Below are positions 4,089 to 58,783 of a stretch of 59,056 nucleotides of DNA, piece after piece. Positions within the stretch are counted from its first letter, which is position 1; every line of letters starts with the position of its first letter. Position numbers and translations under genes: made by a program. The DNA is taken from positions 1 to 59,056 of the IMG/VR virus record IMGVR_UViG_3300043395_003306; one strand, written 5' to 3'. The notes beneath the pieces were generated by a model, which worked only from the letters and a program-made list of their open reading frames with translations, was not told the DNA's origin and made no database searches. This DNA comes from a virus.

Positions 4089-4463
4089 TCAGTCTATAAA
4101 GCCCGGTGTAGATATCATAATGGATACCGCAGGGGCAGTGGTAGGGAGAAGTGCAGTCGAGTTTGTTTCGTTCTGAAGGGCTACGTCCGGAATTAGGGAG
4201 CCAGGAAGCGTTACGTCCCCACGCTCGGTAAACCGCGTACTCCATTCCGCGGATAACGCACCTCCTAGATCAAGACCCACAACCGGCACACGGACTGCCG
4301 CTTTTGCGGTGATGTGCTCTACAACTGCCTCAGCAATCGCGTCGAACAGGTAGGAAGCGTCGGTTTTTGTCGGATCATCATCAGGCAACGCCGCAGCCTC
4401 AAGTCTATACGTATCGACCTTAGACTTAATTAGGGCGGAAAGTTCTGAAGCACTGAGCGCCAT
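4089..4463 (-). CDS. hypothetical small virion-region protein (124 aa)
   Basis: The ATG at 4463 overlaps the TAA of the spike-like gene (TAATG), so it is probably translated by coupling. The N-terminal half is helical with an early SASELSALIKSKVD stretch. The C-terminal half is Thr/Pro/Ala-rich. There are no cysteines or membrane segments. Small helical proteins after a spike gene are often chaperones or adaptor proteins of the tail tip, but I see no motif that proves this. The stop lies 29 bases before the start of the next gene. Confidence 0.6.
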   Translation of the reverse strand: MALSASELSALIKSKVDTYRLEAAALPDDDPTKTDASYLFDAIAEAVVEHITAKAAVRVPVVGLDLGGALSAEWSTRFTERGDVTLPGSLIPDVALQNETNSTALLPTTAPAVSIMISTPGFID

Positions 4464-5482
4464 TACTCTACCTTGAGCCGGGGTGTGAGGTATGGGGCGT
4501 TGCCGGCGACGGAACTAGTGAGGTTACTGACCAGCGTATCGAGTCCCGGCAGAGAGATGCCCACGGAAAAAAGGGCGGCTTTCAACTGTGTCATGGCGTT
4601 ACTTAGATCAGAGATAAAAGTGTCGCCCAGAATAAACTTCTCGGCCGCAGCCTCATCTTGCTCGTAAATGACCATATCCCCTGTGTTGTCATTTAGGGCA
4701 ATGCGTACATCTTGCGGCTCTATGCCAATTCTACCGGTGCGGTCTGCAACGATCTGTGCTTTTACAACCGACTCTTCGTTGTCCTCTCGTACAAGGAGTC
4801 GGTAGACAGGGTCCTCGACGGTTACGGGCTTATTGTCCTCAATGTCTCCGTAGAGTTCCGTAAGAGCGCCACCTACGTGGATCTCGACTGCGGCGTATTT
4901 TTCGTCTGCAAACGCACGAACCTTTGTCACATACTGGCAGGCCTCAACGTAATCTTCATCTTCTTCGGGTGGTTGTGTTGTGAACGCAAAGGAGGATCCC
5001 GGTGTCTCCATTAAGTAATTCATAGCGTGAGTGCGTATTTGCTTTCCCGTAGCTTCAAGCGCGACAAAGCATAAAGGGGAGATACCTCGAATCTCTACCG
5101 ACCCGTCACGGTTAACGTAAAGACCGTTTTTGAGCGGGGCGACCATACGCATGTCGCCAGGAGACATAGGGTATGGGCTGCTCGTACCGCCGACGTAGGA
5201 TCCGTCTTGGTCGACTAAGCTGCGATATCCAATAATAAACGCTTTGTCTGTTTTGTCCGAGTCGCGCGCAACCCACACCTGCGCGCCTCTTTCTGGGAAA
5301 GCTAAAATGCCGGCGCCCTGTAGGCTGTGTAGGTACGGATTAGCCAGTAACGCATCAAAATAAACGTTTCTGTCCCCCAGGTCTACGGACACCGTACAGG
5401 TAGACTGTGCGGGATTTACGTTTTCAATTTTCCCTGCCTGTATGCGGGCGGGGAATGTTCCACTTTTTGTTCCGCTATTCAT
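4463..5482 (-). CDS. baseplate spike-like protein with N-terminal OB-fold (gpV/gp5 type)
   Basis: Residues about 10-85 read as the OB-fold found at the start of baseplate spike or hub proteins: an opening ARIQAGKIENVNPAQSTCTV strand pair, a GILAFPERGAQVWVA turn and a closing FIIGY. Then follow PMSPGDMRMVAP and NRDGSVEIRG, like the transition to the spike domain of phage P2 gpV and Mu gp45 type proteins. The rest is beta-rich and ends in a hydrophobic region. The protein would form the trimeric tip below the tail tube. The ATG at 5482 overlaps the TGA of the RNA polymerase gene (ATGA). Function is inferred from pattern similarity only. Confidence 0.5.
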   Translation of the reverse strand: MNSGTKSGTFPARIQAGKIENVNPAQSTCTVSVDLGDRNVYFDALLANPYLHSLQGAGILAFPERGAQVWVARDSDKTDKAFIIGYRSLVDQDGSYVGGTSSPYPMSPGDMRMVAPLKNGLYVNRDGSVEIRGISPLCFVALEATGKQIRTHAMNYLMETPGSSFAFTTQPPEEDEDYVEACQYVTKVRAFADEKYAAVEIHVGGALTELYGDIEDNKPVTVEDPVYRLLVREDNEESVVKAQIVADRTGRIGIEPQDVRIALNDNTGDMVIYEQDEAAAEKFILGDTFISDLSNAMTQLKAALFSVGISLPGLDTLVSNLTSSVAGNAPYLTPRLKVE

Positions 5483-8400
5483 TTATGCGTAACCCCGGCA
5501 GGAATTAGGGCCTGCGGCTTACGCAGTCCAAATTCTGCTCCGTGCGCAAGCCCCGCCACGTTTGAGCCATGAATATCGGAGGTCCATGCCTGAGACGCCG
5601 CCTCGGTAAACGTGTCCTTGAGTCTGCGGTAGTTGGCGCGAGCAAGGAAGTCCTCAGAGTGGGTCAGAGGAACCTGTTCCATGCTCTTGAGCACGGGCAC
5701 ATGCTCAATCGGCGCAAGACCTTGCTTTTTGGCCTCACGATTTAGGTTTTCAACGTGGTCTAAAGCAATCAGCTGACCACGCAGGTATTCCGGGTGGTCC
5801 GGTGCGTGCTCTACGCGTGCTACGTTAGTCATAGCCTTAACGACAGTCTCAACGTTTCTACGCCGCAGTTTTACGCCAGAGTTACCGTAGGCACTAAGGG
5901 CTTCGTTAGTGAGGTACCCACGAACAGCGTGAATGTTCTTAGTGGCCTCAAGCAACTCATGTGGGTTGATCGGCCCGTGTGACAGGGGATCCCCCGCCTT
6001 AACCTCCAGCCCCGGCTTTACCGTTTCTAGAATATGGCGGTCGGCCAGAATGCGGTGCGCCTTATCGTTGACAAATACGTTGTATCCGCCGCGCGCCTTA
6101 TCCTGCTCGACCTTTGTTACTTTGCCGCTGACGGCCGCAATTGTTGCGGAGCCAGGTAGCGTAGCAGGGACCTTAAAGATTTGCTTCACACGCTCAAATG
6201 CGTCGGCAGTATAGTCCCCACCTTTTTGGGATGAGACGGCTCCGCCGGTGTGGAACGTCTTCATGGCCAGCTGCGTGACCGGCTCTCCAAGGGAGTGACC
6301 CGCAATTACGCCTACGTTTGTACCCACAGAATACGTGTGCCCGTTCTCGTTTAGCCCGTAGCACTTTGCGCAAATGCCTTTCTGCATCTGGCAGTGAAGC
6401 GGCGAGCGCACAATTACCTGAGGAATCTTAGCAACACGAAGTTGCTGGATTACCTGTGATGTCAGAAGGGTGCCCGCAGGTACGTCCTTTCCGCCGGTCA
6501 CATGCACTGGCTGTGCAAGGTACCGGTCATGAACATCGCGGTCGTCGATAGAAAGCGCGGAGCCCTTTGTCGTGTGGCAATCTTCCGCCGTAATTTGGTG
6601 GTCAATTACCGTATTGATGATGACCTTAGACAGGGCGCCAGGCTCTGCCGTGCCTGCCGCACGGTCAATTGCCCCCTTACGAGCACCGTGCATTGAAGTC
6701 CAATACTGGGAGGTAGTGAGCCCCTCTGCGTAGGATTTTGTGATGGGAAGAGCAACTGGGCGGTTCTTTGCGTCAGCAACAAGAATGGGCCCGAAGGTCA
6801 TCTGGCGGAACTGCTCCCAGTTACCGCGGGCCTTTGCAGCAACCCACTCGTACATCTTGTTCTTGCTAGTGCCGTACGCCGCCTCCCCCTTCTTCTTGAT
6901 CTCATCAAGGGCACCGGCGTAGAGCTGTACGATCTTTTGATCCTTCTCTGCCTGAGAAATCTTTGACGAGCGGATTTTCTTTTCCTCGTCCTCGTACTTC
7001 CCAAGAATACTGTCGCGTAACTTGATGGCGTCGTGGAAGTCGTTCAAGGAGAAGGAGCTTCCGTTAAAGTACGCAGCCTTTACGCTGAAGTCCTGTAGAG
7101 ACTTCACGACTCGTGCGTAGTCCTGTTTGTGTTCTTTGGCTACGCGCGTCAACAGGTTTTGCAGAGTTCCCTTGTCGAACCGATAATTTTTATCGTGCAG
7201 AAGCTTTTCGTCGTTCTGCATGTCTGGCGGAAGGAAATGAGCAATAATCGCACGACCAACCGTTGTTTCACGTCCGTGAAATGTGAAAGTCTGGTCTTCG
7301 TGAATCTTTCCATCGTTCCAGAGCTTGTACGCTTCTTCTGCTGAGCCAATCTTTACCTTTGCCGGCTCTCCCCACTTTGTTGCCTGGAACAACCCAATAA
7401 GGAGGTCTTTCTCTGGCATCGGCATGATTTGGCCCGAGGTCGGAGAAAACAGATTGTTTGACGGCATCATTTTCTTGGCATCATTGACCGCTTCGTTGCC
7501 AAGCGGAACGTACAACGCCATGGTGTCGCCGTCGTGGTCCGCGTTGAACCCGGAAGTGACCAGCGGATGCAGGCCGATTGCCTTGCCTTCCGTGATGCGC
7601 GGGGTGAAGGCAAGGATGGAGAACTTATGGAGCGACGGATCGCGCTTTAGAAGAACAGGACGATCAGCAACAACGCGATGTAGAACTTCCACTGCGAAGG
7701 GGTGCTTTTCGTCCACCATCTTCTTGGCTTCGTGGGGGAGGTAGTTGTGGCGGGCATGCAGCTCCTTAACTACGAACGGCTTGTACATCTCAAAGGCGAT
7801 GGGAAGTGGGATCCCGGCCTCGTCTAGACCCAGCTCCGGCGCAGTAATGATCGTAGAGCGGCCCGAAAGGTCTTGGCGGCGATACACAACAGAACTCTGG
7901 AAGTATGAGCCCTTTGTTCCTTCCATCAGCTCCATCAGGCCGCGGTAGTGCCGAGCCTTGGACGACTTCTGTTGAATATCCAGCCCACCTACGCGCAGAG
8001 ACTTCACCGCATCGTACAGGTCTGCAACCTGCCTTTGCTGCGCCGCCTTACCGACGCCTTCTGCCACGTTCTTACGCAGGGACTCGTTTAGAATTCCTAC
8101 ATTCTGGTACAGAAGATTTAGGTCGTCGACGGTCTGAGACCCGTCAGGGTTTACCATCAAAGGACGCATCGTAGGGGGCAGAACCGGTAAGTGCTGCATC
8201 GTATACGCGTCAACAGGCTTGATTCCTGTCTTCTTGAGGGCCTGTAAATACCGAATACGGCGGTACGCCCGGTCTAGCGGCGCGCCTTTTAGCTTCCCAA
8301 TCTGGGAGTTCAGGTCTTTCAGTTCCTTGTCGACGTCAATGTTCTTGAGAGCATCAACAATTACCTCAGTACCCAGTTTCCCACCCTGATGTCCCTCGTG

Positions 8401-11400
8401 CGAGATGAGCTTCTCATACGCCTTTTCATCAATCCCAGTAAGGGACTGGATGGCGCGCTCAAATACGGGGTTGGGTAGGCGGTGGTTGAGGTCGAGGTGC
8501 GTCCAGAAATTACCCTGTAGGCCGCCGGTTAGTTTTTTATCAAACAGACCGCCCTTGTCCTCAATAGTACGGGCCGTGACCTGCTTCAGGTCTCCCTTAA
8601 TTGTGGTCAGCTTGGACGGGGCCGCGAGCTTGCCGGTGCTGAACTTAAGGGTCTGCGCATCTGTAAGCGGCTGAAGAACGTACTTGTCGCCCTTCTTCTC
8701 CATATGCATGCCCATCGCACGCATGTAGTTGATGAACTTCCCCATGCTCTTATTTGGCTTGGGGTCAGGCAGCGGACGGTTTTGCTGAAGAGCTACCCAG
8801 ACATCCGACTGCGACTGGTCGGACTTCCAAGTCTGCGCTTCACGGAGAATGTTTGTCGCCCCGTGCGCCAGAAGAGCGTAAGTCGTAAGCTGGTCAAGTG
8901 TCTGACCGCCGCCGGGAATACCAGACCCACCAGGAGGCTCACCATTAGAGTCATACGCCCCTCCGTGCGAACGGGCTGTCATCTTCTTATCGACTTGATG
9001 GTGAAGCTTTAAAAGGTACTGGTCGCCCGTCAAGATCTGGCCGAGGCTTCTCTTTGTCTTGGGGTCAAATAGTTCTTCGGTGTCAGAGAGCTTGTGCTGC
9101 TTAAGCTCGTCCATGACCTTTTGCGTATAGTCGACACCCGGCTGGAAATTGTCCACGACATACGGCTTTCCAGTCTTGCGCGCAATTTTTGATGCGGCAG
9201 TCTCCAAAAGCTGGCCGATATTCATACGACTTGGGACGCCGGCTGGTCCGAGAATTACATCTACGGGCTTACCGTCCTTATCGTGCGGCATTTCGTGGTC
9301 GGGAAGGATCGTACCGATGATCCCTTTGTTTCCGTAGCGCCCTGTGAGCTTGTCGCCGACGGTAGAGGGCTCCTCTGTACGGACGAAAACCTTTACCGAC
9401 TTACCAGCACGGACAACTTTGGCGACGACTCCGGGGTAATCATGTTCCCAGAATACTGAGCCACGGGTGTCGTAGGGTGTAGCGAGTGATCGTGCGATAG
9501 TCCTCGCCTCATCGCGCGGATCAACGCGAGCAGGCGCAACAACTGCAATAAGGACATCTCCATGCTCTACTCGCTGGCCCTGCTTGATTACTCCATCGTC
9601 TCCCAGCTTATTGACGCGCTGCGCCGTAGCCTTGTCGGGAGAGGAGTACGAAATCCATCGCTTCTTGTCCGTCTGCATCCCAGAGAAAAGCTCTACGCTC
9701 ATTTCGTGAAGGTGGGTAGAGGTCAACTTCTTCGCTGCGGACTCCGACACAACGATTGAATCTTCAAACGTGCGCCCGTGGTACGTCATGTACCCAACAC
9801 GCATGTTGGTGCCAAGAGCTAAACTGCCGTCCCGTGTGTAATTAGAGTCGGCGACAACCTGCCCCTGCTTCACCTTGTCTCCGGCTTTTACAAGCGGGTC
9901 AGAGTGGAGCATGGTCTTTCCGCCGTTTAGCGGGAAATGGTCGTACAGCGCAACCTTGCGTACCTTGCCATCGTCGGCCTTTATATGAATATGCGACTCG
10001 TCTACCTTTGTAACCGTTCCAGCTACCGGGGCCGCGTGTGAGCCAAATGTCCCAACTAACTGGTCAAACGTGTAGTTTGAGTCCGTTTTAGTCTGGACTA
10101 GGGGAGCTTCTCGGTCCTTGAGCGAGATCGCCTGCTCCATTTGCTTTGCCGCAAACATGGCACGGTTGCCCGAGTTTGTAGAAAGAAACGGAACTAAATT
10201 TGCGGCAAATGAAAAGAGCCCCTTTGACGAAGGGAGAACGTACTGCACCTCTGACCAGGGCTTTTGGGCTGTGCGCCGATCCGAGTCAAAGACGGTAACC
10301 ATGTTGCTATTCGGGACAGGCTTTCCATTCTTCCAAGACACCTGATCTGGGTACGCAACTACAGCCTGCTCTAGGGTTCCTGGGGTTGCGTCAACAAAAG
10401 ACCCCTTCTTTACGTCCCACACACGAGTAACAAGCACCTTTCCTTTCTTACGCGCCCCAATTGGAAGGTGGAGAGAGATACCCGTGGCGTCGCTTTCGGG
10501 CGTCTGCACTGGGTCAAGGAAGCCCAAGTGAGATGCGTTGATAAGCTTGTCCTCGGTCTTAATTGTCTCTCCGCCCTTAATACCGCCAAAGTCGGCACCT
10601 AAAATTGTGGTGCGCAAGTGCCCTGAAAGGAACTGTAGTGGGTTCGTCTGCTCCGGAAGTTGCCCGGCGCGAAACGTGTTTCCGATTGTACCTGTGTAGA
10701 GGTCTCGGGCCGGAATCTCAGAAAGCTTAGATGCCCGGTCAATTACCGCGGTGATCTTACGAGTAGCGTCTCGCTGGTTCCGAGTAATGAACCGCTCTAC
10801 GAAATCCGCAGTGCTAGTAATGTCTTTGGCCGCAAGCGTCTGACGGTCGTCCGGCTCTGCGTGTGCGCGAGAGATGTCTAGGATTCTTTTTGACGACGCA
10901 AGCAGCGCGGGGGCAGTAACGTGCCCGAATTCCAGACCAAGCGTGTTGTGCTGGTCCCCGTCTGGGCGCGTTGTCTTCATATCGCTAAACAACTTTGCGA
11001 CGTACGCAGACGCATCCGCAACCGACATAGACGCCGCTTTCTTTTTTTCCTCCGCCGTCTTTGCAAACGTCTTTGGAATCTTAAGTAGGTCTTCGGGCTT
11101 TGCGCGCGCCTTGTTTACCTCGAACACCGTCTTGCCAAACGCCTTTTCAATATCGGCGTCTGACATATTTAGAGACTTGAGTACGGAGTAAACCGGAACG
11201 GTAGACGTACCAATTGCCATCGTGACGCGCCCAGTAGAGCGGTCGATATTTAGGTCGAACCCTTTTTTGCCCTGAAACGCCCAACGTGCCTCAATCTCTC
11301 CGTTGTCCGCGACGCGGTGGTAAACGCCAGGCTTGAGAAGAAAGACGCTGTCGTGTTGCCGCTCGTGACCGTCCACAATGTAGCTATAGCGGCGCGTAAT

Positions 11401-11682
11401 CTTTGGAATGCGTGCAACCGTTACGGTGTCTTCGTCTAGCTTCTTGCCCGACGCAATATCAACAAGACGCAACGTGGCGCGCACAGGAACAGCCCAAGTG
11501 CCTCCTTCTACGCGCTTCTGGTACTGCGACTGAATGTCATCAAGATGCAGGTTGTCCTGCACCTCAATCCCTACCAGCTCAAGGCGCTTCTTTGTTCCCG
11601 CCATGGGGAACTGGCTGCTAATCGCAGCAACAGCGCGAGTTTTGATCTCGTTAAACGCGGCTTCTGGGTTCAGGTCGGGCAT
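5479..11682 (-). CDS. fused beta-beta' subunit DNA-directed RNA polymerase (2067 aa)
   Basis: One uninterrupted chain carries both large subunits of a bacterial-type RNA polymerase. Beta part, about residues 1-990: protrusion motif YIVDGHERQHDS, Rif-region EQTNPLQFLSGHLRTT (344-359), FEDS (639-642), GDKLTGRYGNKG (776-787, with the two lysines matching E. coli K1065 and K1073), PSRMNIGQLLE, and LKLHHQVDKKM (891-901). Beta' part, about 1035-2067: LPVLPPTMRPL, LSGRSTIITAP, catalytic NADHDGD (1380-1386, three Asp kept), trigger-loop MHGARKG (1664-1670), second zinc site Cys1702, 1764, 1771 and 1774, and GHSLGEPVTQLAMKTFHTGG. The N-terminal zinc domain of beta' is absent. No sigma, alpha or omega gene is visible here. 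No clear Shine-Dalgarno site precedes the ATG. The stop overlaps the spike-like gene (ATGA). Confidence 0.95.
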   Translation of the reverse strand: MPDLNPEAAFNEIKTRAVAAISSQFPMAGTKKRLELVGIEVQDNLHLDDIQSQYQKRVEGGTWAVPVRATLRLVDIASGKKLDEDTVTVARIPKITRRYSYIVDGHERQHDSVFLLKPGVYHRVADNGEIEARWAFQGKKGFDLNIDRSTGRVTMAIGTSTVPVYSVLKSLNMSDADIEKAFGKTVFEVNKARAKPEDLLKIPKTFAKTAEEKKKAASMSVADASAYVAKLFSDMKTTRPDGDQHNTLGLEFGHVTAPALLASSKRILDISRAHAEPDDRQTLAAKDITSTADFVERFITRNQRDATRKITAVIDRASKLSEIPARDLYTGTIGNTFRAGQLPEQTNPLQFLSGHLRTTILGADFGGIKGGETIKTEDKLINASHLGFLDPVQTPESDATGISLHLPIGARKKGKVLVTRVWDVKKGSFVDATPGTLEQAVVAYPDQVSWKNGKPVPNSNMVTVFDSDRRTAQKPWSEVQYVLPSSKGLFSFAANLVPFLSTNSGNRAMFAAKQMEQAISLKDREAPLVQTKTDSNYTFDQLVGTFGSHAAPVAGTVTKVDESHIHIKADDGKVRKVALYDHFPLNGGKTMLHSDPLVKAGDKVKQGQVVADSNYTRDGSLALGTNMRVGYMTYHGRTFEDSIVVSESAAKKLTSTHLHEMSVELFSGMQTDKKRWISYSSPDKATAQRVNKLGDDGVIKQGQRVEHGDVLIAVVAPARVDPRDEARTIARSLATPYDTRGSVFWEHDYPGVVAKVVRAGKSVKVFVRTEEPSTVGDKLTGRYGNKGIIGTILPDHEMPHDKDGKPVDVILGPAGVPSRMNIGQLLETAASKIARKTGKPYVVDNFQPGVDYTQKVMDELKQHKLSDTEELFDPKTKRSLGQILTGDQYLLKLHHQVDKKMTARSHGGAYDSNGEPPGGSGIPGGGQTLDQLTTYALLAHGATNILREAQTWKSDQSQSDVWVALQQNRPLPDPKPNKSMGKFINYMRAMGMHMEKKGDKYVLQPLTDAQTLKFSTGKLAAPSKLTTIKGDLKQVTARTIEDKGGLFDKKLTGGLQGNFWTHLDLNHRLPNPVFERAIQSLTGIDEKAYEKLISHEGHQGGKLGTEVIVDALKNIDVDKELKDLNSQIGKLKGAPLDRAYRRIRYLQALKKTGIKPVDAYTMQHLPVLPPTMRPLMVNPDGSQTVDDLNLLYQNVGILNESLRKNVAEGVGKAAQQRQVADLYDAVKSLRVGGLDIQQKSSKARHYRGLMELMEGTKGSYFQSSVVYRRQDLSGRSTIITAPELGLDEAGIPLPIAFEMYKPFVVKELHARHNYLPHEAKKMVDEKHPFAVEVLHRVVADRPVLLKRDPSLHKFSILAFTPRITEGKAIGLHPLVTSGFNADHDGDTMALYVPLGNEAVNDAKKMMPSNNLFSPTSGQIMPMPEKDLLIGLFQATKWGEPAKVKIGSAEEAYKLWNDGKIHEDQTFTFHGRETTVGRAIIAHFLPPDMQNDEKLLHDKNYRFDKGTLQNLLTRVAKEHKQDYARVVKSLQDFSVKAAYFNGSSFSLNDFHDAIKLRDSILGKYEDEEKKIRSSKISQAEKDQKIVQLYAGALDEIKKKGEAAYGTSKNKMYEWVAAKARGNWEQFRQMTFGPILVADAKNRPVALPITKSYAEGLTTSQYWTSMHGARKGAIDRAAGTAEPGALSKVIINTVIDHQITAEDCHTTKGSALSIDDRDVHDRYLAQPVHVTGGKDVPAGTLLTSQVIQQLRVAKIPQVIVRSPLHCQMQKGICAKCYGLNENGHTYSVGTNVGVIAGHSLGEPVTQLAMKTFHTGGAVSSQKGGDYTADAFERVKQIFKVPATLPGSATIAAVSGKVTKVEQDKARGGYNVFVNDKAHRILADRHILETVKPGLEVKAGDPLSHGPINPHELLEATKNIHAVRGYLTNEALSAYGNSGVKLRRRNVETVVKAMTNVARVEHAPDHPEYLRGQLIALDHVENLNREAKKQGLAPIEHVPVLKSMEQVPLTHSEDFLARANYRRLKDTFTEAASQAWTSDIHGSNVAGLAHGAEFGLRKPQALIPAGVTHK

Positions 11683-11688
11683 AGCGAA

Positions 11689-11694
11689 ATCATA
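11689..11694 (-). promoter_or_regulatory. possible -10 element for the RNA polymerase gene
   Basis: On the minus strand TATGAT lies six bases before the ATG of the fused RNA polymerase gene. No good -35 hexamer sits 16-18 bases further up and no Shine-Dalgarno sequence precedes the ATG. If it is a real -10 box, transcription would begin at or next to the start codon and the message would be leaderless. The same hexamer also occurs upstream of the leftward gene starting at 16958. Confidence 0.3.
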
Positions 11695-11759
11695 ACCTAT
11701 TGAGGGTCATAAGATAACTGCACTCGACACGAAGTCGTAGATGCAGACAAAGGACAACC

Positions 11760-12283: not shown

Positions 12284-12705
12284 ATTACCGGTGCGATTGG
12301 TGTGCCACCGCAATCTACACGGGCGATGAGGCCTATAACATTGCCGCTTTTAGTATGGGTATCGGGCACCGAACGGGTAACCTATGCCTAGAAGAAGACT
12401 ACTTTGCGGACGGGGGACACGAGGTGCTCGTCCACAAGTGGTGCTTCCGCGCCGCAGTTAGTTCTAGTCTGCTTGATCACGCATCTAAGCTAAACAACAG
12501 CTGCGCTTGGTGCGACTCGTTGTTTCGCCACAACAACCGAGTAGTTGTTGTGTCGCCGCATCAAGTTCGTATTAGCAAACGGCACGGCGGCGTGTTTCTT
12601 GCCCCATTTCAGTTTCCCCACGGAGATATTGAACGCGTGTTTCACGAAGACTGTTTCGTGCCGCACGCGGAGGGCTTTGCGCACCGCCTTTGGTCTGCCG
12701 CCTAA
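12241..12705 (+). CDS. tandem CxxC...HxxC zinc-module protein (154 aa)
   Basis: ATG 12241 is chosen because AAGGAG (12225-12230) lies ten bases upstream. An ATG at 12232 is too close to that site. The protein contains two modules with the same spacing: C18-x2-C21 then H65-x2-C68 (HKWC), and C88-x2-C91 then H135-x2-C138 (HEDC). The distance from the second Cys to the His is 44 residues in both. This looks like a duplicated zinc-binding fold, perhaps treble-clef-like. Its stop codon overlaps, on the opposite strand, the stop codon of the portal gene. Function is unknown. Confidence 0.65.
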   Translation: MPGMEHSAEPVEEVDYRCDWCATAIYTGDEAYNIAAFSMGIGHRTGNLCLEEDYFADGGHEVLVHKWCFRAAVSSSLLDHASKLNNSCAWCDSLFRHNNRVVVVSPHQVRISKRHGGVFLAPFQFPHGDIERVFHEDCFVPHAEGFAHRLWSAA

Positions 12706-14858
12706 CCAACCTGACGACCCAGTGCCCGCTGAGAACCGCCAGCGGGCACTGGGGCCTTCAGGGCATTCATCGGGTTTACTTGCGACCCCGACTCTTCATT
12801 CATTAGCTGGATGACTAGCTGATACAGCGCAGGGTTCTCGGTGCGCATCTTCATTAGCTCTTGCTGCTTTTGCGCCTCGCCCTGCTCATCGCCAACAGTG
12901 TCAAGGTAGGCCTTAGCACGACGGGCAACGTAACGAAGATCTACGCCGCCTTGTCCAACTGTAAGCGGGGATGACATACCTGCCATAGGTACCGGCAAGT
13001 TTCCGCCCGGAGACCCCGCGTTTTCGTCGTATGCGGTCGCACCCTGCGGCATTCCTGGGGTTTGCTGGGCCTGTTCCGGCGGCTGCTCTTGTTCTTGCGG
13101 TGCAGCCTGTTCTTGGGCAGGCGCTTGCTGCTCTTGCCCCTGTACGGCCGCATTCTGCTGCGCCGCTTCCGGTGTCTGTGCATTTGGTGCACGCTGCGCG
13201 GGAGTAAGAGGAGACTGCGGTTGTCCGCCTTGAGCCGCCGCCTGCTCCGCAGCTTGCTGCTGCTGCACTGCCGCCATTTGCTGCTGCTGCTCCATCTGAG
13301 CTTGCCCCTGAAGGGCCTGGGCCTTGATTGAGTAGCGCGAGGAGCGTAGCTGCGCCTCTCCTTGAATATCTGCGGTAGCCGTCTGCATACGCCGTTGCAC
13401 GTCGAGCTGAATCTTCATCTCCTCGTGCATGCGCTTGACCTCTAGCGCCGTGTCCTCGCCCAGCTCCTCGTGCAGACGCTTGTCGGAAATCTTGAGCGCC
13501 TGATTTAGCTGTAGGTAGAACATAGACCGCTGTAGGTCGTCCGCCATCTTGAAGCGGTCAAAGCGAGAGCTGACCTTGGGCCACCGCATAAAGGCAGCAA
13601 TACCGCCAAAGATGAAGTCATTCACCATGCGGTGCCGCGCACGATTGTACCCCATGAACATGTTCTCTAGGGCGCGCAAAGATGTATTACTTCCGCTCCA
13701 CGAAAGGCCACCAAATACGAACTCGATAGGAATACCGGCACCCACCAGCATTTGCTCCGCGACTAGACGGAACTCCTGGTGCAGCATTAGCGCACGGGCG
13801 TCTCCGCCAAACTGCTGCAACCCGATGTTTACCGGCAGGATGGGGATGTAGTTGTTGTCACGCTTCCAGATAGAGAGTTCGGTCTCAATCTTGGACTTCC
13901 AGTTTGTAAGATTGTACGAACCGTAAGGTTGATCATTACCGCCGGTTGACGGACCAGGGAAGATCATGCGAAGGGGCACAATGTGCTCCATCGCAATACT
14001 CTCTTGTGCTTTCTTTAGCGTCTGAAGGTAGAAGGCGTCCTTGAGGAGCGGGTAGATAAGGGGGGATCCCCAGCCCTGATCCTTCTGCGCCAGCGTAGGA
14101 CGCTTGAGGTGGAAGAAGTTATCTGGACTAAAGCGGAGAGACTTACCCTTACGCGCGGCCTCAAGAAACTCTAGGGGCAGGCGTTCGACCGTCTCCGGAT
14201 CGCCCATCGTAATATCGTTAAGAACTGCGCGAGACAATTTGTAATAGTAGCGCGTAAGGCCTGTAACTTCGTTGTGCTTTATCTGGATGTTTTCTGGGTT
14301 CCAGCGCACTAAACGAATGTCACGTACAGAACGAATGTATACATCTCGCTCTTCTGCATAGTCTGCCTTGCGGCAGCTTGGGCAGCTAAGATGAAAACGG
14401 TTGTTCTTCCATCGATATAGCGAGCGATTTGCGTCCGCACGGTAGCGTTCCTTGCAGTGCCGACACGCAAGGTACTTCACAAATGGGTAGTAAACCGAGA
14501 CAAACGCGTTTCCGTACGCGAAGTAGTCTAGCCCGGCTTCTACTTGGAACTGCCGGAGATTAAGCTGCTCCTCTAGATCCTGATACAGCCTCCGCTTACC
14601 GGGGTCGTCTGTGTCAAAGATAATAGGAGTAACGGGGTACTCCGCCATCTTTGTACATGCGACGTTGATAATTGGGTTTGACAGGAAGTAGTAACGACAC
14701 CAATTTAAAAGCTGGTGTACGTTGTCGGGTAAGAACTGCTGCGCAACATCAAAGAATGGCGACGGGTAGCGAACACCAAAGCTACGCTGCCCGCTACTTT
14801 GAAGATTTCGGGTGTTAAACCGGTCCCCAGAATCTACCGATGCACTAAAGAAGTTCAT
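12702..14858 (-). CDS. portal protein with inserted zinc knuckle (718 aa)
   Basis: Portal proteins form the dodecameric ring at the capsid vertex through which DNA passes. The support here is overall layout: an N-terminal wing region, AYGNAFVSVYYPF (114-126) typical of portals, basic strand-rich core with VRDIRLVRWNPENI, a SIAMEHIVPLRMIFPGPS helix, GAGIPIEFVFGGLSWSGSN in the stem region, and a helical crown. Residues 132-162 add Cys132, Cys135, Cys159 and Cys162, a zinc-knuckle insertion unusual for portals. Residues about 520-650 are Gln/Ala/Pro-rich and probably disordered. The ATG overlaps the TGA of the gene upstream (ATGA). Portal identity is by pattern, not by database search. Confidence 0.75.
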   Translation of the reverse strand: MNFFSASVDSGDRFNTRNLQSSGQRSFGVRYPSPFFDVAQQFLPDNVHQLLNWCRYYFLSNPIINVACTKMAEYPVTPIIFDTDDPGKRRLYQDLEEQLNLRQFQVEAGLDYFAYGNAFVSVYYPFVKYLACRHCKERYRADANRSLYRWKNNRFHLSCPSCRKADYAEERDVYIRSVRDIRLVRWNPENIQIKHNEVTGLTRYYYKLSRAVLNDITMGDPETVERLPLEFLEAARKGKSLRFSPDNFFHLKRPTLAQKDQGWGSPLIYPLLKDAFYLQTLKKAQESIAMEHIVPLRMIFPGPSTGGNDQPYGSYNLTNWKSKIETELSIWKRDNNYIPILPVNIGLQQFGGDARALMLHQEFRLVAEQMLVGAGIPIEFVFGGLSWSGSNTSLRALENMFMGYNRARHRMVNDFIFGGIAAFMRWPKVSSRFDRFKMADDLQRSMFYLQLNQALKISDKRLHEELGEDTALEVKRMHEEMKIQLDVQRRMQTATADIQGEAQLRSSRYSIKAQALQGQAQMEQQQQMAAVQQQQAAEQAAAQGGQPQSPLTPAQRAPNAQTPEAAQQNAAVQGQEQQAPAQEQAAPQEQEQPPEQAQQTPGMPQGATAYDENAGSPGGNLPVPMAGMSSPLTVGQGGVDLRYVARRAKAYLDTVGDEQGEAQKQQELMKMRTENPALYQLVIQLMNEESGSQVNPMNALKAPVPAGGSQRALGRQVG

Positions 14859-32962: not shown

Positions 32963-33460
32963 TTAGCTCAGTTTCTTGATTACGACCCCGCTGCCTCCCG
33001 TCATTCCCCAGGAGCGTGCTGCGGCAATGCTGGCCGCGTTGTTGGGGCTTATCTCACCTACGATACCCGTACAGTTTTGAAACCGGCACATCTCCTCAAA
33101 CGCGTGGAAGAGTCGACGCCCTACTCCCTCCGCACGGTCGTCGGCGTGCACAACAATATCCTCTAGGTAGGCATGAGGCCCTGTGATTGAGCCAATCAGC
33201 ATACCGCGAACTACATGTAGGTTGCTCTCGGCGTACGTGCGGTGTGCAACGAGCACGCATTTCGTGGGCGGCGCGGTACGAAGTTCCTGAGCGACAACCT
33301 CTAGTAGATCGGGTACCCAGGTCTTTCCATCTATGCTGCGCCCAGCCTCTACATCACCGTTAGTGATGTAGAGTTCGCCGTTGCGCGGGGTATGCGCATG
33401 AAAGAAGGCAGCAAGTCTTTCTGGGAAAAACTCACCGCCCATCGAGGAAATAAAAATCAT
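32963..33460 (-). CDS. GNAT-family acetyltransferase (165 aa)
   Basis: GNAT enzymes move an acetyl group from acetyl-CoA to an amine. Motif A is seen in YLEDIVVHADDRAEGVGRRL, with the pyrophosphate-binding RAEGVG. Motif B is seen in SPNNAASIAAARSWGM. The full fold length is present. ATG 33460 overlaps the TAA of the holin-like gene (TAATG). It is the last gene of the leftward virion block, before the terminator. Substrate is unknown; a host or virion protein target would be the usual guess. Confidence 0.8.
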   Translation of the reverse strand: MIFISSMGGEFFPERLAAFFHAHTPRNGELYITNGDVEAGRSIDGKTWVPDLLEVVAQELRTAPPTKCVLVAHRTYAESNLHVVRGMLIGSITGPHAYLEDIVVHADDRAEGVGRRLFHAFEEMCRFQNCTGIVGEISPNNAASIAAARSWGMTGGSGVVIKKLS

Positions 33461-57028: not shown

Positions 57029-58783
57029 TTAGAACGCGCCGCCACCATTTGACCCGCTGATGGGCGACATGACCTCAAGGTACCGGAACGTTGAGAAGCT
57101 CTGCGGAATACCGCTGGGATCGCCGTCCCGGCAAAAGAACTCAAAGCCCATGGTGTCACGGTGGTACGCAGGAATAACCGCGTGCAGCGTGAACACACCG
57201 GGGATCGGACTGTTTGAGCCGTCTAGATTCTGCGGAACTACAGCGAACCCGTTTAGGAACCCGTTTGCCCCTGAAGAGTCCGCCGCCGAGAGGAGGCTGC
57301 CAGCAGAGGGCGCGTTGTACATAGCAACACTCGTACCAGAGGTGCTGTTCTTTGCCTTGACAAAGACCTTACCCGCTGGCGACGTACCAAGCACGTCTGG
57401 ATCCTCAAGAGCACCTGTCTCTCCGTCACGGACGTTAACCGAGATGGAAAGGCGGAACTCTGTGGACTTCGAGAAGATGCGCTCTGGCACGAACGGGAGC
57501 AGCACGGCGTTCGTCTGCACCGCGAGGGTGTCAACCGTGGCCTTGACTGCCGCGATATCGGCCGAGAGTGAGGCGCCAGCGGGCGACCCGATCTTGCTCT
57601 GGATGTCCGTGGTATCGGCCTCGATGTCAACCAGCTGGGCCTTGGCTGCTGCGATACGGCCAAAGACCGTCGTCGTAGTAGCTGAGGTGTCAGATGACGT
57701 GCCGAGCTTATCGGAGACCGCAACTAGACCGTCCGTGCCATCAGACAGGATGTCCCACGCCTGGTAGAGCGCGTGACCTGCTGTGTTTGCGCCCTTACCC
57801 GATACATCGTCGTCCCAGACGTCAGAACCGGCCAGGTTATCGTAGATGGCCTTTAACGCCTGCGCCACGTTTGTCGGAGCTGCGGCACCAACAAAGTAGG
57901 TACCAATATCACCAATCTCGGCCTTGATATCGTCTACGTTTCCGTCAACGGTTGCAAGTGCCGTGTCTACGTCGTCAATGTGCCCCTTGAGTGCCGATAG
58001 GCCGAAGGTGGCACTCTCAACCGCAGTCTTGATGTCATCAACATTGCTGTCGATTGTGGCAATATCGTTCTGGTTATCGTTGATTTCTGCCTGAAGTGCT
58101 GAGAGCCCGTAAGTCGCGTTCTCAAGCAGAGTCTCGATGTTGTCGGCCGTAGTGCCAACGCCGTCTACTGCCGACTTAATCGCCGACAAGCCAAACGTAG
58201 CGCTTTCGACCGCAGTCTTGACATCATCAACGTTGCCGTCGACGGTATCGATCAGCGACTTGAGCGCGCCGAGACCGTCAGTGCCGTTATCTAGGTCATC
58301 CTGGACACCCTTGGCCTTTAGGTAGATTGCGCTGAGCGCCCCCGCAACGTCGTCAGGGACAGACACAAGGCCCGTCCAAGTCTCGCCCGACACGTCACCG
58401 ATCTCAGTCTGAAGGGCGTCAACATCCGCCTGAACAGCAGCCACGTCCGACTCAACGTCGGTAAGCTTGCTAAGCACGTCGGCAAAGTGACCCGTAGGAG
58501 CGTATGCCCACAGAGGAATACGGGCGCCCTCGTTTCCAGCAGAAATGACGGCGTAGTAGGTGCGGTCCGCGGTCATATTCGCGGCGTTTACCTTTAGGGC
58601 GTACAGACCTCCGCCGTTATCTAGGACGCTAACTCCCGCAGACACTGTCGGATCTGCACCAGAGGCGTCGTCCGTCTCGTAGACGGTTGCAACGGGACTC
58701 AGGCCCGAAGCACTCAGCTGGAAGGGAAAATATGCGTTTTTACCGGAGGGAACAATACGATCCCAGAGCATGGTAACAGCCAT
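57029..58783 (-). CDS. coiled-coil tail fibre or whisker protein with repeats (584 aa)
   Basis: The N-terminal 95 residues form a beta domain. Residues about 100-400 are a long coiled coil with repeats: NVDDVKTAVESATFGLSAIK, a variant NIETLLENATYGLSALQ, then NVDDIKTAVESATFGLSALK. The C-terminal 150 residues form a beta domain (FRLSISVNVRDG, GVFTLHAVIPAYHRDTMGFE) that may bind receptors or join other fibres. The [A/N]-T-[F/Y]-G-L-S-A-[I/L]-[K/Q] pattern occurs in trimeric phage fibres. ATG 58783 follows AAAGGA. A sigma70-like promoter and a terminator bracket the gene. Confidence 0.75.
   Translation of the reverse strand: MAVTMLWDRIVPSGKNAYFPFQLSASGLSPVATVYETDDASGADPTVSAGVSVLDNGGGLYALKVNAANMTADRTYYAVISAGNEGARIPLWAYAPTGHFADVLSKLTDVESDVAAVQADVDALQTEIGDVSGETWTGLVSVPDDVAGALSAIYLKAKGVQDDLDNGTDGLGALKSLIDTVDGNVDDVKTAVESATFGLSAIKSAVDGVGTTADNIETLLENATYGLSALQAEINDNQNDIATIDSNVDDIKTAVESATFGLSALKGHIDDVDTALATVDGNVDDIKAEIGDIGTYFVGAAAPTNVAQALKAIYDNLAGSDVWDDDVSGKGANTAGHALYQAWDILSDGTDGLVAVSDKLGTSSDTSATTTTVFGRIAAAKAQLVDIEADTTDIQSKIGSPAGASLSADIAAVKATVDTLAVQTNAVLLPFVPERIFSKSTEFRLSISVNVRDGETGALEDPDVLGTSPAGKVFVKAKNSTSGTSVAMYNAPSAGSLLSAADSSGANGFLNGFAVVPQNLDGSNSPIPGVFTLHAVIPAYHRDTMGFEFFCRDGDPSGIPQSFSTFRYLEVMSPISGSNGGGAF
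57925..58270 (-). repeat. internal DNA repeats in the fibre coiled coil
   Basis: About 50-base segments near 57998-58046 and 58187-58236 are close copies that encode SATFGLSA repeats, with weaker copies between. They arise from duplication of coiled-coil units and can expand or contract. Confidence 0.65.

What the first reader, a model, noticed from the sequence alone, without database searches (positions are those of the whole stretch)
5479..11682. Phage gene encodes a fused beta-beta' RNA polymerase in one chain
Seen: both beta motifs (Rif region, FEDS, GDKLTGRYGNKG, LKLHHQVDKKM) and beta' motifs (NADHDGD, MHGARKG, second zinc site) occur in order in 2067 residues without a stop. Established: jumbo phages of the phiKZ kind split beta and beta' over several genes; natural beta-beta' fusions are known in Helicobacter and Wolbachia. 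Inference: this is a separate type of phage multisubunit polymerase with bacterial-like motif conservation. I cannot tell without a search whether close relatives are already described.
Basis: partly seen in the sequence, partly recalled or inferred. Interest (0 to 1): 0.85.

Follow-up and report, generated by a model that had tools for sequence, protein, structure and literature searches.

The report
Phage's single-chain bacterial-type RNA polymerase
This phage gene encodes the two large halves of a bacterial-type RNA polymerase as one long protein; relatives are widespread in uncultured phages, usually with their own sigma factor, and a cultured relative carries the enzyme in its virus particles, so these phages probably inject their own transcription machine.

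Summary
On the minus strand (5479-11682) one 2067-residue frame encodes complete bacterial-type beta then beta', joined without a linker near residue 996. A 151-kb sister contig has the same uninterrupted gene (89% identity, dN/dS 0.04), and about 100 further IMG/VR contigs have the fused form, so it is neither assembly error nor host DNA. In trees the family is one clade apart from bacterial RNAP; phiKZ-type enzymes are barely detectable with the same profiles. Relatives carry the enzyme in two pieces (Salmonella phage Arash, Vibrio phage D69) or three; in three-piece forms the 'beta' gene still ends with the start of beta', so an older fusion was later cut. The gene almost always follows a portal homologue. 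No phage alpha subunit was found, but a divergent sigma family occurs in 27 of 37 fused and 6 of 6 split genomes tested. Published Arash virion proteomics finds the beta/beta' chain (most spectra), the beta' remainder and this sigma. Best reading: a virion-carried single-chain core plus phage sigma. The lineage was probably already seen as 'mReC' (2020); the single chain, the fission series and the cognate sigma appear undescribed in the papers searched.

The parts
5479..11682 (-). Fused beta-beta' RNA polymerase, 2067 aa, single ORF (ATG at 11682, stop at 5479)
   Evidence: same single ORF in L001; dN/dS 0.043
8698..11682 (-). beta part, residues about 1-995; predicted fold matches bacterial beta
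   Evidence: model m7d9512844ddb (residues 1-1110): mean pLDDT 86; VIA Z 32.1, 844 aligned, 3.7 A to 9dvs_C
5479..8697 (-). beta' part, residues about 996-2067; predicted fold matches bacterial beta' from its residue 3 onwards
   Evidence: model m02e25b7891bb (residues 985-2067): mean pLDDT 86; VIA Z 34.7, 1017 aligned, 3.9 A to 9ukt_D, model residue 12 = Thermus beta' residue 3
8539..8730 (-). Linkerless joint, residues 985-1048: end of beta (strand 992-997) runs straight into the start of beta' (strand 1000-1005, then GGLFD)
   Evidence: comparison with E. coli ends
9322..9357 (-). beta catalytic-barrel motif GDKLTGRYGNKG, residues 776-787
7525..7545 (-). beta' active-site motif NADHDGD, residues 1380-1386 (three Asp kept, Phe replaced by His)
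6673..6690 (-). Bridge-helix motif HGARKG, residues 1665-1670
6361..6579 (-). Second zinc site of beta', Cys 1702, 1764, 1771, 1774
   Evidence: invariant and aligned with bacterial Cys
6241..6285 (-). Trigger-loop motif EPVTQLAMKTFHTGG, residues 1800-1814
12702..14858 (-). Homologue of the Arash portal protein gp204, upstream of the RNAP gene
   Evidence: BLAST 29% to Arash gp204; a homologue lies just 5' of RNAP in nearly all loci; no Pfam or PHROG hit of its own
4463..5482 (-). Baseplate-spike-like gene (weak Phage_base_V OB domain) whose ATG overlaps the RNAP stop by 4 nt (ATGA), suggesting translational coupling
   Evidence: same overlap in L001
11683..11740 (-). Upstream element TTATCTTATGACC shared with close relatives (TGTTATACTTATGACC), about 25-40 nt before the ATG; possible promoter of the RNAP gene, untested
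   Evidence: no recurrence elsewhere in genomes; the consensus sigma-70 scan finds no promoter there

Best explanation
The gene encodes a single-chain core of a bacterial-type multisubunit RNA polymerase. Beta and beta' are joined end to end because the C-terminal strand of beta lies next to the N-terminal strand of beta'; the fusion turns them into a hairpin. One polypeptide thus supplies both catalytic barrels, so no alpha dimer is needed to bring beta and beta' together (inferred). The chain is made with the head-tail genes, packaged in the virion, and ejected with the DNA (presence in virions shown by others for the Arash homologue, inferred here). Inside the cell a dedicated phage sigma factor binds the beta' clamp helices and directs the enzyme to phage promoters, giving transcription that does not wait for host polymerase (inferred). 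In one branch the fused gene was later cut after the active-site barrel of beta', and then again near the start of beta', giving two- and three-gene enzymes. My estimates: active DNA-dependent RNAP 0.93; uses the phage sigma 0.8; carried in the virion 0.7; independent of host alpha 0.6.
For: Domains and catalytic residues complete and in order. Both halves fold as bacterial beta and beta' at high confidence with no linker between them. Purifying selection, dN/dS 0.043. About 100 independent one-ORF relatives. Phage family one clade apart from bacteria, support 100. A portal homologue directly 5' of RNAP across fused, two-piece and three-piece forms, and a 4-nt overlap with the next, baseplate-like gene. 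Arash gp206 (beta + beta' N part) has the most spectra in virions (3516), with gp216 (beta' C part) 1210 and sigma gp10 467, all in the same table as the portal and capsid (PMC10585845). Arash gp10 is the homologue of the sigma family found here (E 1e-42). That sigma family is in 27/37 fused and 6/6 split genomes, including the sister (G001:79248-80009), and its profile matches RpoS/RpoD (E 1e-13). No RpoA domain over cut-off in 37 genomes. One beta copy in 27/27 genomes. Three-piece 'beta' genes still carry the beta' N-terminal segment.
Against: No biochemistry exists. Virion presence is shown only for a distant (about 30% identity) two-piece homologue; the Arash authors themselves allow carry-over of abundant enzymes (PMC10585845), and their list of 116 proteins includes non-structural enzymes. 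Host alpha could still bind. The sigma gene of this phage would lie just outside the window and was not read. Ten of 37 fused records lack the sigma, though several are fragments. The first beta' zinc domain is missing. The order of fusion and fission at the base of the tree is not firmly rooted (searches place L264 differently).
Confidence: 0.7

Rival explanations
1. It is an active fused RNAP but not a virion protein: it is made during infection as a non-virion polymerase for middle or late genes, like the nvRNAP of phiKZ or AR9.
For: Virion presence is known only for a distant homologue and the authors mention carry-over. Only one RNAP per genome is recognisable, so early genes might be read by host RNAP.
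Against: Gene position inside the head-tail cluster in nearly all relatives, translational coupling to a baseplate-like gene, top spectral count of the homologue in virions together with its sigma.
Confidence: 0.22
2. The fused chain replaces only beta and beta' and still assembles with host alpha and omega (and host sigma) as a hijacked holoenzyme, as the fused RpoBC of Helicobacter does in its own cell.
For: Bacterial-like beta fold including the region aligned with bacterial beta; no phage alpha found; bacterial rpoBC fusions work with alpha (established knowledge).
Against: A dedicated phage sigma family accompanies the polymerase; other phage msRNAPs work without alpha (PMC7598289); packaging in virions would argue for self-sufficiency.
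Confidence: 0.2
3. The single frame is an assembly or annotation artefact, or captured host rpoBC DNA.
For: None found.
Against: Same ORF in an independent 151-kb contig and about 100 others; purifying selection; phage gene context; tree apart from bacteria.
Confidence: 0.01
4. The split forms are ancestral and the fused form arose by later joining of separate genes.
For: Bacteria have separate beta and beta'; the base of the phage tree is not firmly resolved.
Against: In three-piece forms the beta gene ends with the beta' N-terminal segment and the cut lies inside beta', and two-piece forms keep the beta-beta' joint; three-piece forms nest beside two-piece forms. So at least the beta-beta' joint predates the cuts. 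Whether the cut after the active-site barrel also postdates fusion is less certain.
Confidence: 0.15

Closest known systems
mReC (multi-subunit RNAP-encoding Caudovirales), Weinheimer & Aylward 2020, PMC7481178
   Same: IMG/VR tailed-phage contigs with bacterial-like beta and beta' (both over 800 aa, NADxDGD) forming a clade apart from cells; baseplate and portal genes nearby
   Different: The paper uses 'fused' only for crAssphage and treats beta and beta' as two subunits; it does not report the single chain, the fission series, the portal synteny or a sigma. Its own sequences could not be compared here.
Salmonella phage Arash gp206 + gp216 + gp10 (PMC10585845) and Vibrio phages D69/D148/D181
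   Same: Homologous over nearly the whole length (about 30% identity); beta-beta' joint kept; portal gene upstream; homologous sigma; virion proteins in Arash
   Different: beta' is cut after the active-site barrel into a second gene; the paper calls gp206 simply 'subunit beta'
phiKZ/AR9-type virion and non-virion RNAPs (jumbo phages; PMC7598289)
   Same: Phage-encoded multisubunit-type RNAP, alpha-less, one version carried in virions; beta' cut after the barrel in split relatives
   Different: Split into 4-5 genes, two polymerases per phage, no recognisable sigma; sequence similarity to this family barely detectable (under 25 bits)
Rhizobium phage RHph_TM30, Yersinia phage YerA41, Cobetia phage Carin-5 polymerases
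   Same: Bacterial-like beta/beta' in tailed phages
   Different: Separate genes in replication or nucleotide-metabolism clusters; TM30 keeps the first beta' zinc domain; YerA41 and Carin-5 fall outside this clade on a long branch
crAss-like phage single-chain RNAP and Thermus phage P23-45 tape-measure-fused virion RNAP (PMC10770324)
   Same: Single-chain, virion-carried phage RNAP related to cellular enzymes (partly from established knowledge)
   Different: Extremely diverged; COG models do not find crAss RNAP (PMC7481178); this chain is full-length bacterial-like
Fused RpoBC of Helicobacter and Wolbachia
   Same: Natural end-to-end beta-beta' fusion (established knowledge)
   Different: Bacterial lineage enzymes with alpha and the first zinc domain (established knowledge); this chain is not in the bacterial clade

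Membership tests
mReC phage RNAP lineage | Bacterial-like beta and beta' each over 800 aa with NADxDGD | tested here: met
   beta about 995 aa and beta' about 1072 aa in one chain, NADHDGD
mReC phage RNAP lineage | RNAP clade distinct from cellular RNAP | tested here: met
   support 100 against 14 and 8 bacteria
mReC phage RNAP lineage | Groups with the published mReC sequences | not testable with these tools
   mReC sequences and supplementary tables not held; sister metagenomes of the published ones (33000179xx series) do yield members, which is only circumstantial
mReC phage RNAP lineage | Major capsid protein of the Gp23 type (PF07068), seen in 8 of 97 mReC | tested here: inconclusive
   none in 16 relatives while phage T4 as control rang; the window holds no capsid gene and most mReC contigs showed none
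phiKZ-type jumbo phage RNAP | beta and beta' split over several genes | tested here: not met
   one 2067-aa ORF
phiKZ-type jumbo phage RNAP | Two polymerases per phage | tested here: not met
   one beta match in each of 27 relatives' genomes; a very diverged second one could be missed
phiKZ-type jumbo phage RNAP | No recognisable sigma | tested here: not met
   sigma family in 27/37 fused and 6/6 split relatives
Virion RNA polymerase (functional class) | Present in purified virions | not testable with these tools
   shown by others for the Arash homologue only
Bacterial RNAP core | Catalytic Asp triad, beta lysine motif, bridge helix, trigger loop, second zinc site | tested here: met
Bacterial RNAP core | First (N-terminal) zinc domain of beta' | tested here: not met
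   deleted in window and relatives
Bacterial RNAP core | alpha subunit encoded alongside | tested here: not met
   no RNA_pol_L over cut-off in 37 relatives, 13 of 14 control genomes rang
Helicobacter/Wolbachia-type fused RpoBC | Lies within a bacterial RNAP lineage | tested here: not met
   outside all sampled bacteria; Helicobacter and Wolbachia themselves were not in the tree
crAss-like single-chain RNAP | Sequence or structural homology to crAss gp66-type enzyme | not tested
   no crAss-like record among the listed tblastn hits, but no direct comparison made

The most novel reading that the evidence does not exclude
A whole phage lineage uses an alpha-independent, single-chain bacterial-type RNAP core with its own virion-packaged sigma. 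Its multi-gene relatives arose by cutting an ancestral fused chain, probably helped by the inteins and introns that target this gene. That would show how split phage polymerases originate and give a minimal, one-polypeptide bacterial-type core for study.
Probability: 0.5. Interest if true: 0.78.

Novelty: new variant of a known kind. Interest (0 to 1): 0.63.

Why it matters
Known virion-carried polymerases related to cellular enzymes are either very diverged (crAss-like, P23-45) or cut into many subunits (phiKZ). This is a full-length, readily alignable bacterial-type core in one chain, accompanied by a phage sigma whose homologue is in virions of a cultured relative. It makes a concrete system for asking whether alpha is dispensable once beta and beta' are tethered, how a sigma-holoenzyme survives packaging and ejection, and in which direction phage RNAP genes are split or fused. 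It also gives a marker and a mechanism for a large group of uncultured phages.

Tried and rejected
Assembly error: rejected, independent contigs carry the same ORF. 'The fused clade lacks sigma': this was my first reading of sigma region 2 and 4 scans and it was wrong; region 3 and a family profile then found a divergent sigma in most of these genomes. A recurrent phage promoter motif: the upstream TTATNCTTATG element is found at most once per genome and once in the window, so no promoter code was obtained. The mReC capsid test was inconclusive. phiKZ subunits were too diverged to place in the tree. The portal homologue and its neighbours have no Pfam or PHROG hit of their own. No Rfam RNA in the window. 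Papers searched did not describe a full beta-beta' fusion in this lineage; subscription papers and preprints are not held.

Full report
What was checked. Pfam gives beta domains followed by beta' domains in order. The record is a 59-kb IMG/VR virus contig with baseplate, DnaB helicase, primase, family A DNA polymerase, RecA-like and nuclease genes.

Not an artefact. A 151-kb contig from another metagenome (L001) has the same uninterrupted 2066-aa gene at 89% identity and the same neighbours. Between the two, synonymous sites are near saturation and dN/dS is 0.043. Two profile scans of IMG/VR gave about 100 distinct contigs with a one-ORF fused form down to about 30% identity. Bacterial genomes returned only ordinary RpoC at 28-33% among the best 80.

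Structure. AlphaFold2 models of residues 1-1110 and 985-2067, built on 53 family members, have mean pLDDT 86 and pTM 0.78 and 0.81. They match bacterial beta (Z 32.1, 844 residues, 3.7 A, 9dvs_C) and bacterial beta' (Z 34.7, 1017 residues, 3.9 A, 9ukt_D). The beta' match begins at Thermus beta' residue 3, which is window residue 996, while the end of bacterial beta aligns to about residue 995. So there is no linker: the last strand of beta (992-997) is followed directly by the first strand of beta' (1000-1005). Sequence profiles of the two parts match solved bacterial RNAPs at E 1e-160 to 1e-223.

Relatives and architecture. Three forms exist. The fused form has one gene. The two-piece form (Arash gp206 + gp216, Vibrio D69, several contigs) has a first gene of about 1525 aa holding beta plus the N part of beta', and a second of about 610 aa with the rest. 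The three-piece form has about 1130, 390 and 610 aa. In the three-piece form the 'beta' gene ends with the beta' N-terminal segment (GGLYDPxTTGGLRGxxWTHYELAE...NPVFERPIKSLLGL), and the next gene starts further inside beta'. The cut is therefore inside beta', which requires that beta and beta' were already joined. Trees put all three forms in one clade apart from bacteria (support 100), the split forms together (97-99) and the three-piece forms beside the two-piece ones. The fused rows are one side of a branch in the better model (support 80); in FastTree one fused row (L264) falls outside them. The root inside the phage clade is thus not firm, but the relic in the three-piece genes does not depend on the root. 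phiKZ subunits score under 25 bits with the same profiles that give E. coli RpoC 674 bits.

Context and function. A homologue of the Arash portal protein lies directly 5' of the RNAP gene in nearly every locus, whatever the architecture. In the window and its sister the RNAP stop overlaps the start of a baseplate-like gene by 4 nt. Published mass spectrometry of Arash virions found gp206 with the most spectra of any protein (3516, 128 unique peptides), gp216 1210, portal 877 and sigma gp10 467; the authors note that carry-over is possible (PMC10585845). Scans for sigma regions 2 and 4 first suggested that fused genomes lack sigma, but region 3 rang in 17 of 20. The ORFs found form a divergent sigma family of about 230-320 aa, whose profile matches RpoS and RpoD (E 1e-13) and which is present in 27 of 37 fused and 6 of 6 split genomes. 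The Arash member is gp10, the sigma detected in virions. The sister's copy is at G001:79248-80009. Next to it is the gene homologous to window 57029-58783, so the window's own copy should lie a few hundred bases beyond the right end (inference). No alpha subunit was found in 37 genomes, and only one beta copy in each of 27.

Mechanism. I propose a virion-carried, single-chain core that works with a phage sigma to start transcription on entry. Shown here: sequence, predicted fold, joint, conservation, synteny, sigma co-occurrence. Shown by others for a homologue: presence in virions. Inferred: activity, alpha independence, early transcription.

Comparison with the known. Weinheimer & Aylward (PMC7481178) described 97 tailed-phage contigs from IMG/VR with beta and beta' in a deep clade (mReC). 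Their filters (both subunits matched, each over 800 aa, NADxDGD) would pass a fused chain and fail the split forms, so their set probably contains fused forms, but the text calls only crAssphage fused. A 2023 hydrothermal-mat study placed one further phage RNAP at the base of that clade (PMC10159854). Jumbo-phage RNAP reviews describe only split enzymes and note the common beta' cut after the barrel (PMC7598289). I therefore class this as a new variant of a known kind.

Side observations. The gene is a repeated target of mobile elements in relatives: inteins with LAGLIDADG domains sit at NADFDGD, in the trigger loop and at two beta sites, and group I introns with homing endonucleases interrupt beta in Vibrio phage D181 and in L070. 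This fits, but does not prove, the idea that mobile elements drive splitting of phage RNAP genes (proposed for other jumbo phages, cited in PMC7598289).

Noticed in passing
L007 (residue 1811 site), L025, L030, L050, L052, L056, L194, L196, L197, L200, L253, L075: Inteins (LAGLIDADG, in most cases with an Intein_splicing domain) inserted in the RNAP of relatives, mostly at the catalytic NADFDGD motif, once in the trigger loop (TFH|TGG), at two beta sites and in the beta' N-terminal segment; not in the window.
   Followed up: yes
L279:2491-2771 (Vibrio phage D181), L070:11458-11739: Group I introns followed by a homing endonuclease gene interrupt the beta part of the RNAP gene (Rfam RF00028, over 100 bits).
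   Followed up: yes
G001:C1:79248-80009 and 26 other fused genomes; Arash gp10: Divergent sigma-factor family co-occurring with the RNAP; the Arash member is a virion protein, and Arash carries a second sigma (gp196) that is not named in the virion proteome.
   Followed up: partly
window 11683-11740 and the same position in L001, L019, L257, L260, L262: Conserved TGTTATACTTATGACC-like element about 20-45 nt before the RNAP start, preceded in several relatives by a short hairpin; looks like an extended -10 promoter, once per genome.
   Followed up: partly
L191 genome (G037:20688-21386), L205 genome (G053:134104-134811): The sigma homologue reads through an in-frame TGA or two TAA codons, while the RNAP gene is open; either frameshift, decay or stop-codon recoding.
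   Followed up: no
L041, L220, L023: RNAP frames broken at unusual places (near residues 630, 750 and 1905); may be sequencing errors, introns or real splits.
   Followed up: no
phages collection: OR844998, OR846602, AFYI01000006, CAKLQH020000005 and similar: Several public 'phage' records carry ordinary bacterial rpoB-rpoC and are probably host contamination.
   Followed up: no
window 32963-33460 (-): Small GNAT acetyltransferase gene beside the tail-fibre gene; phage GNATs that modify host RNAP are known elsewhere.
   Followed up: no
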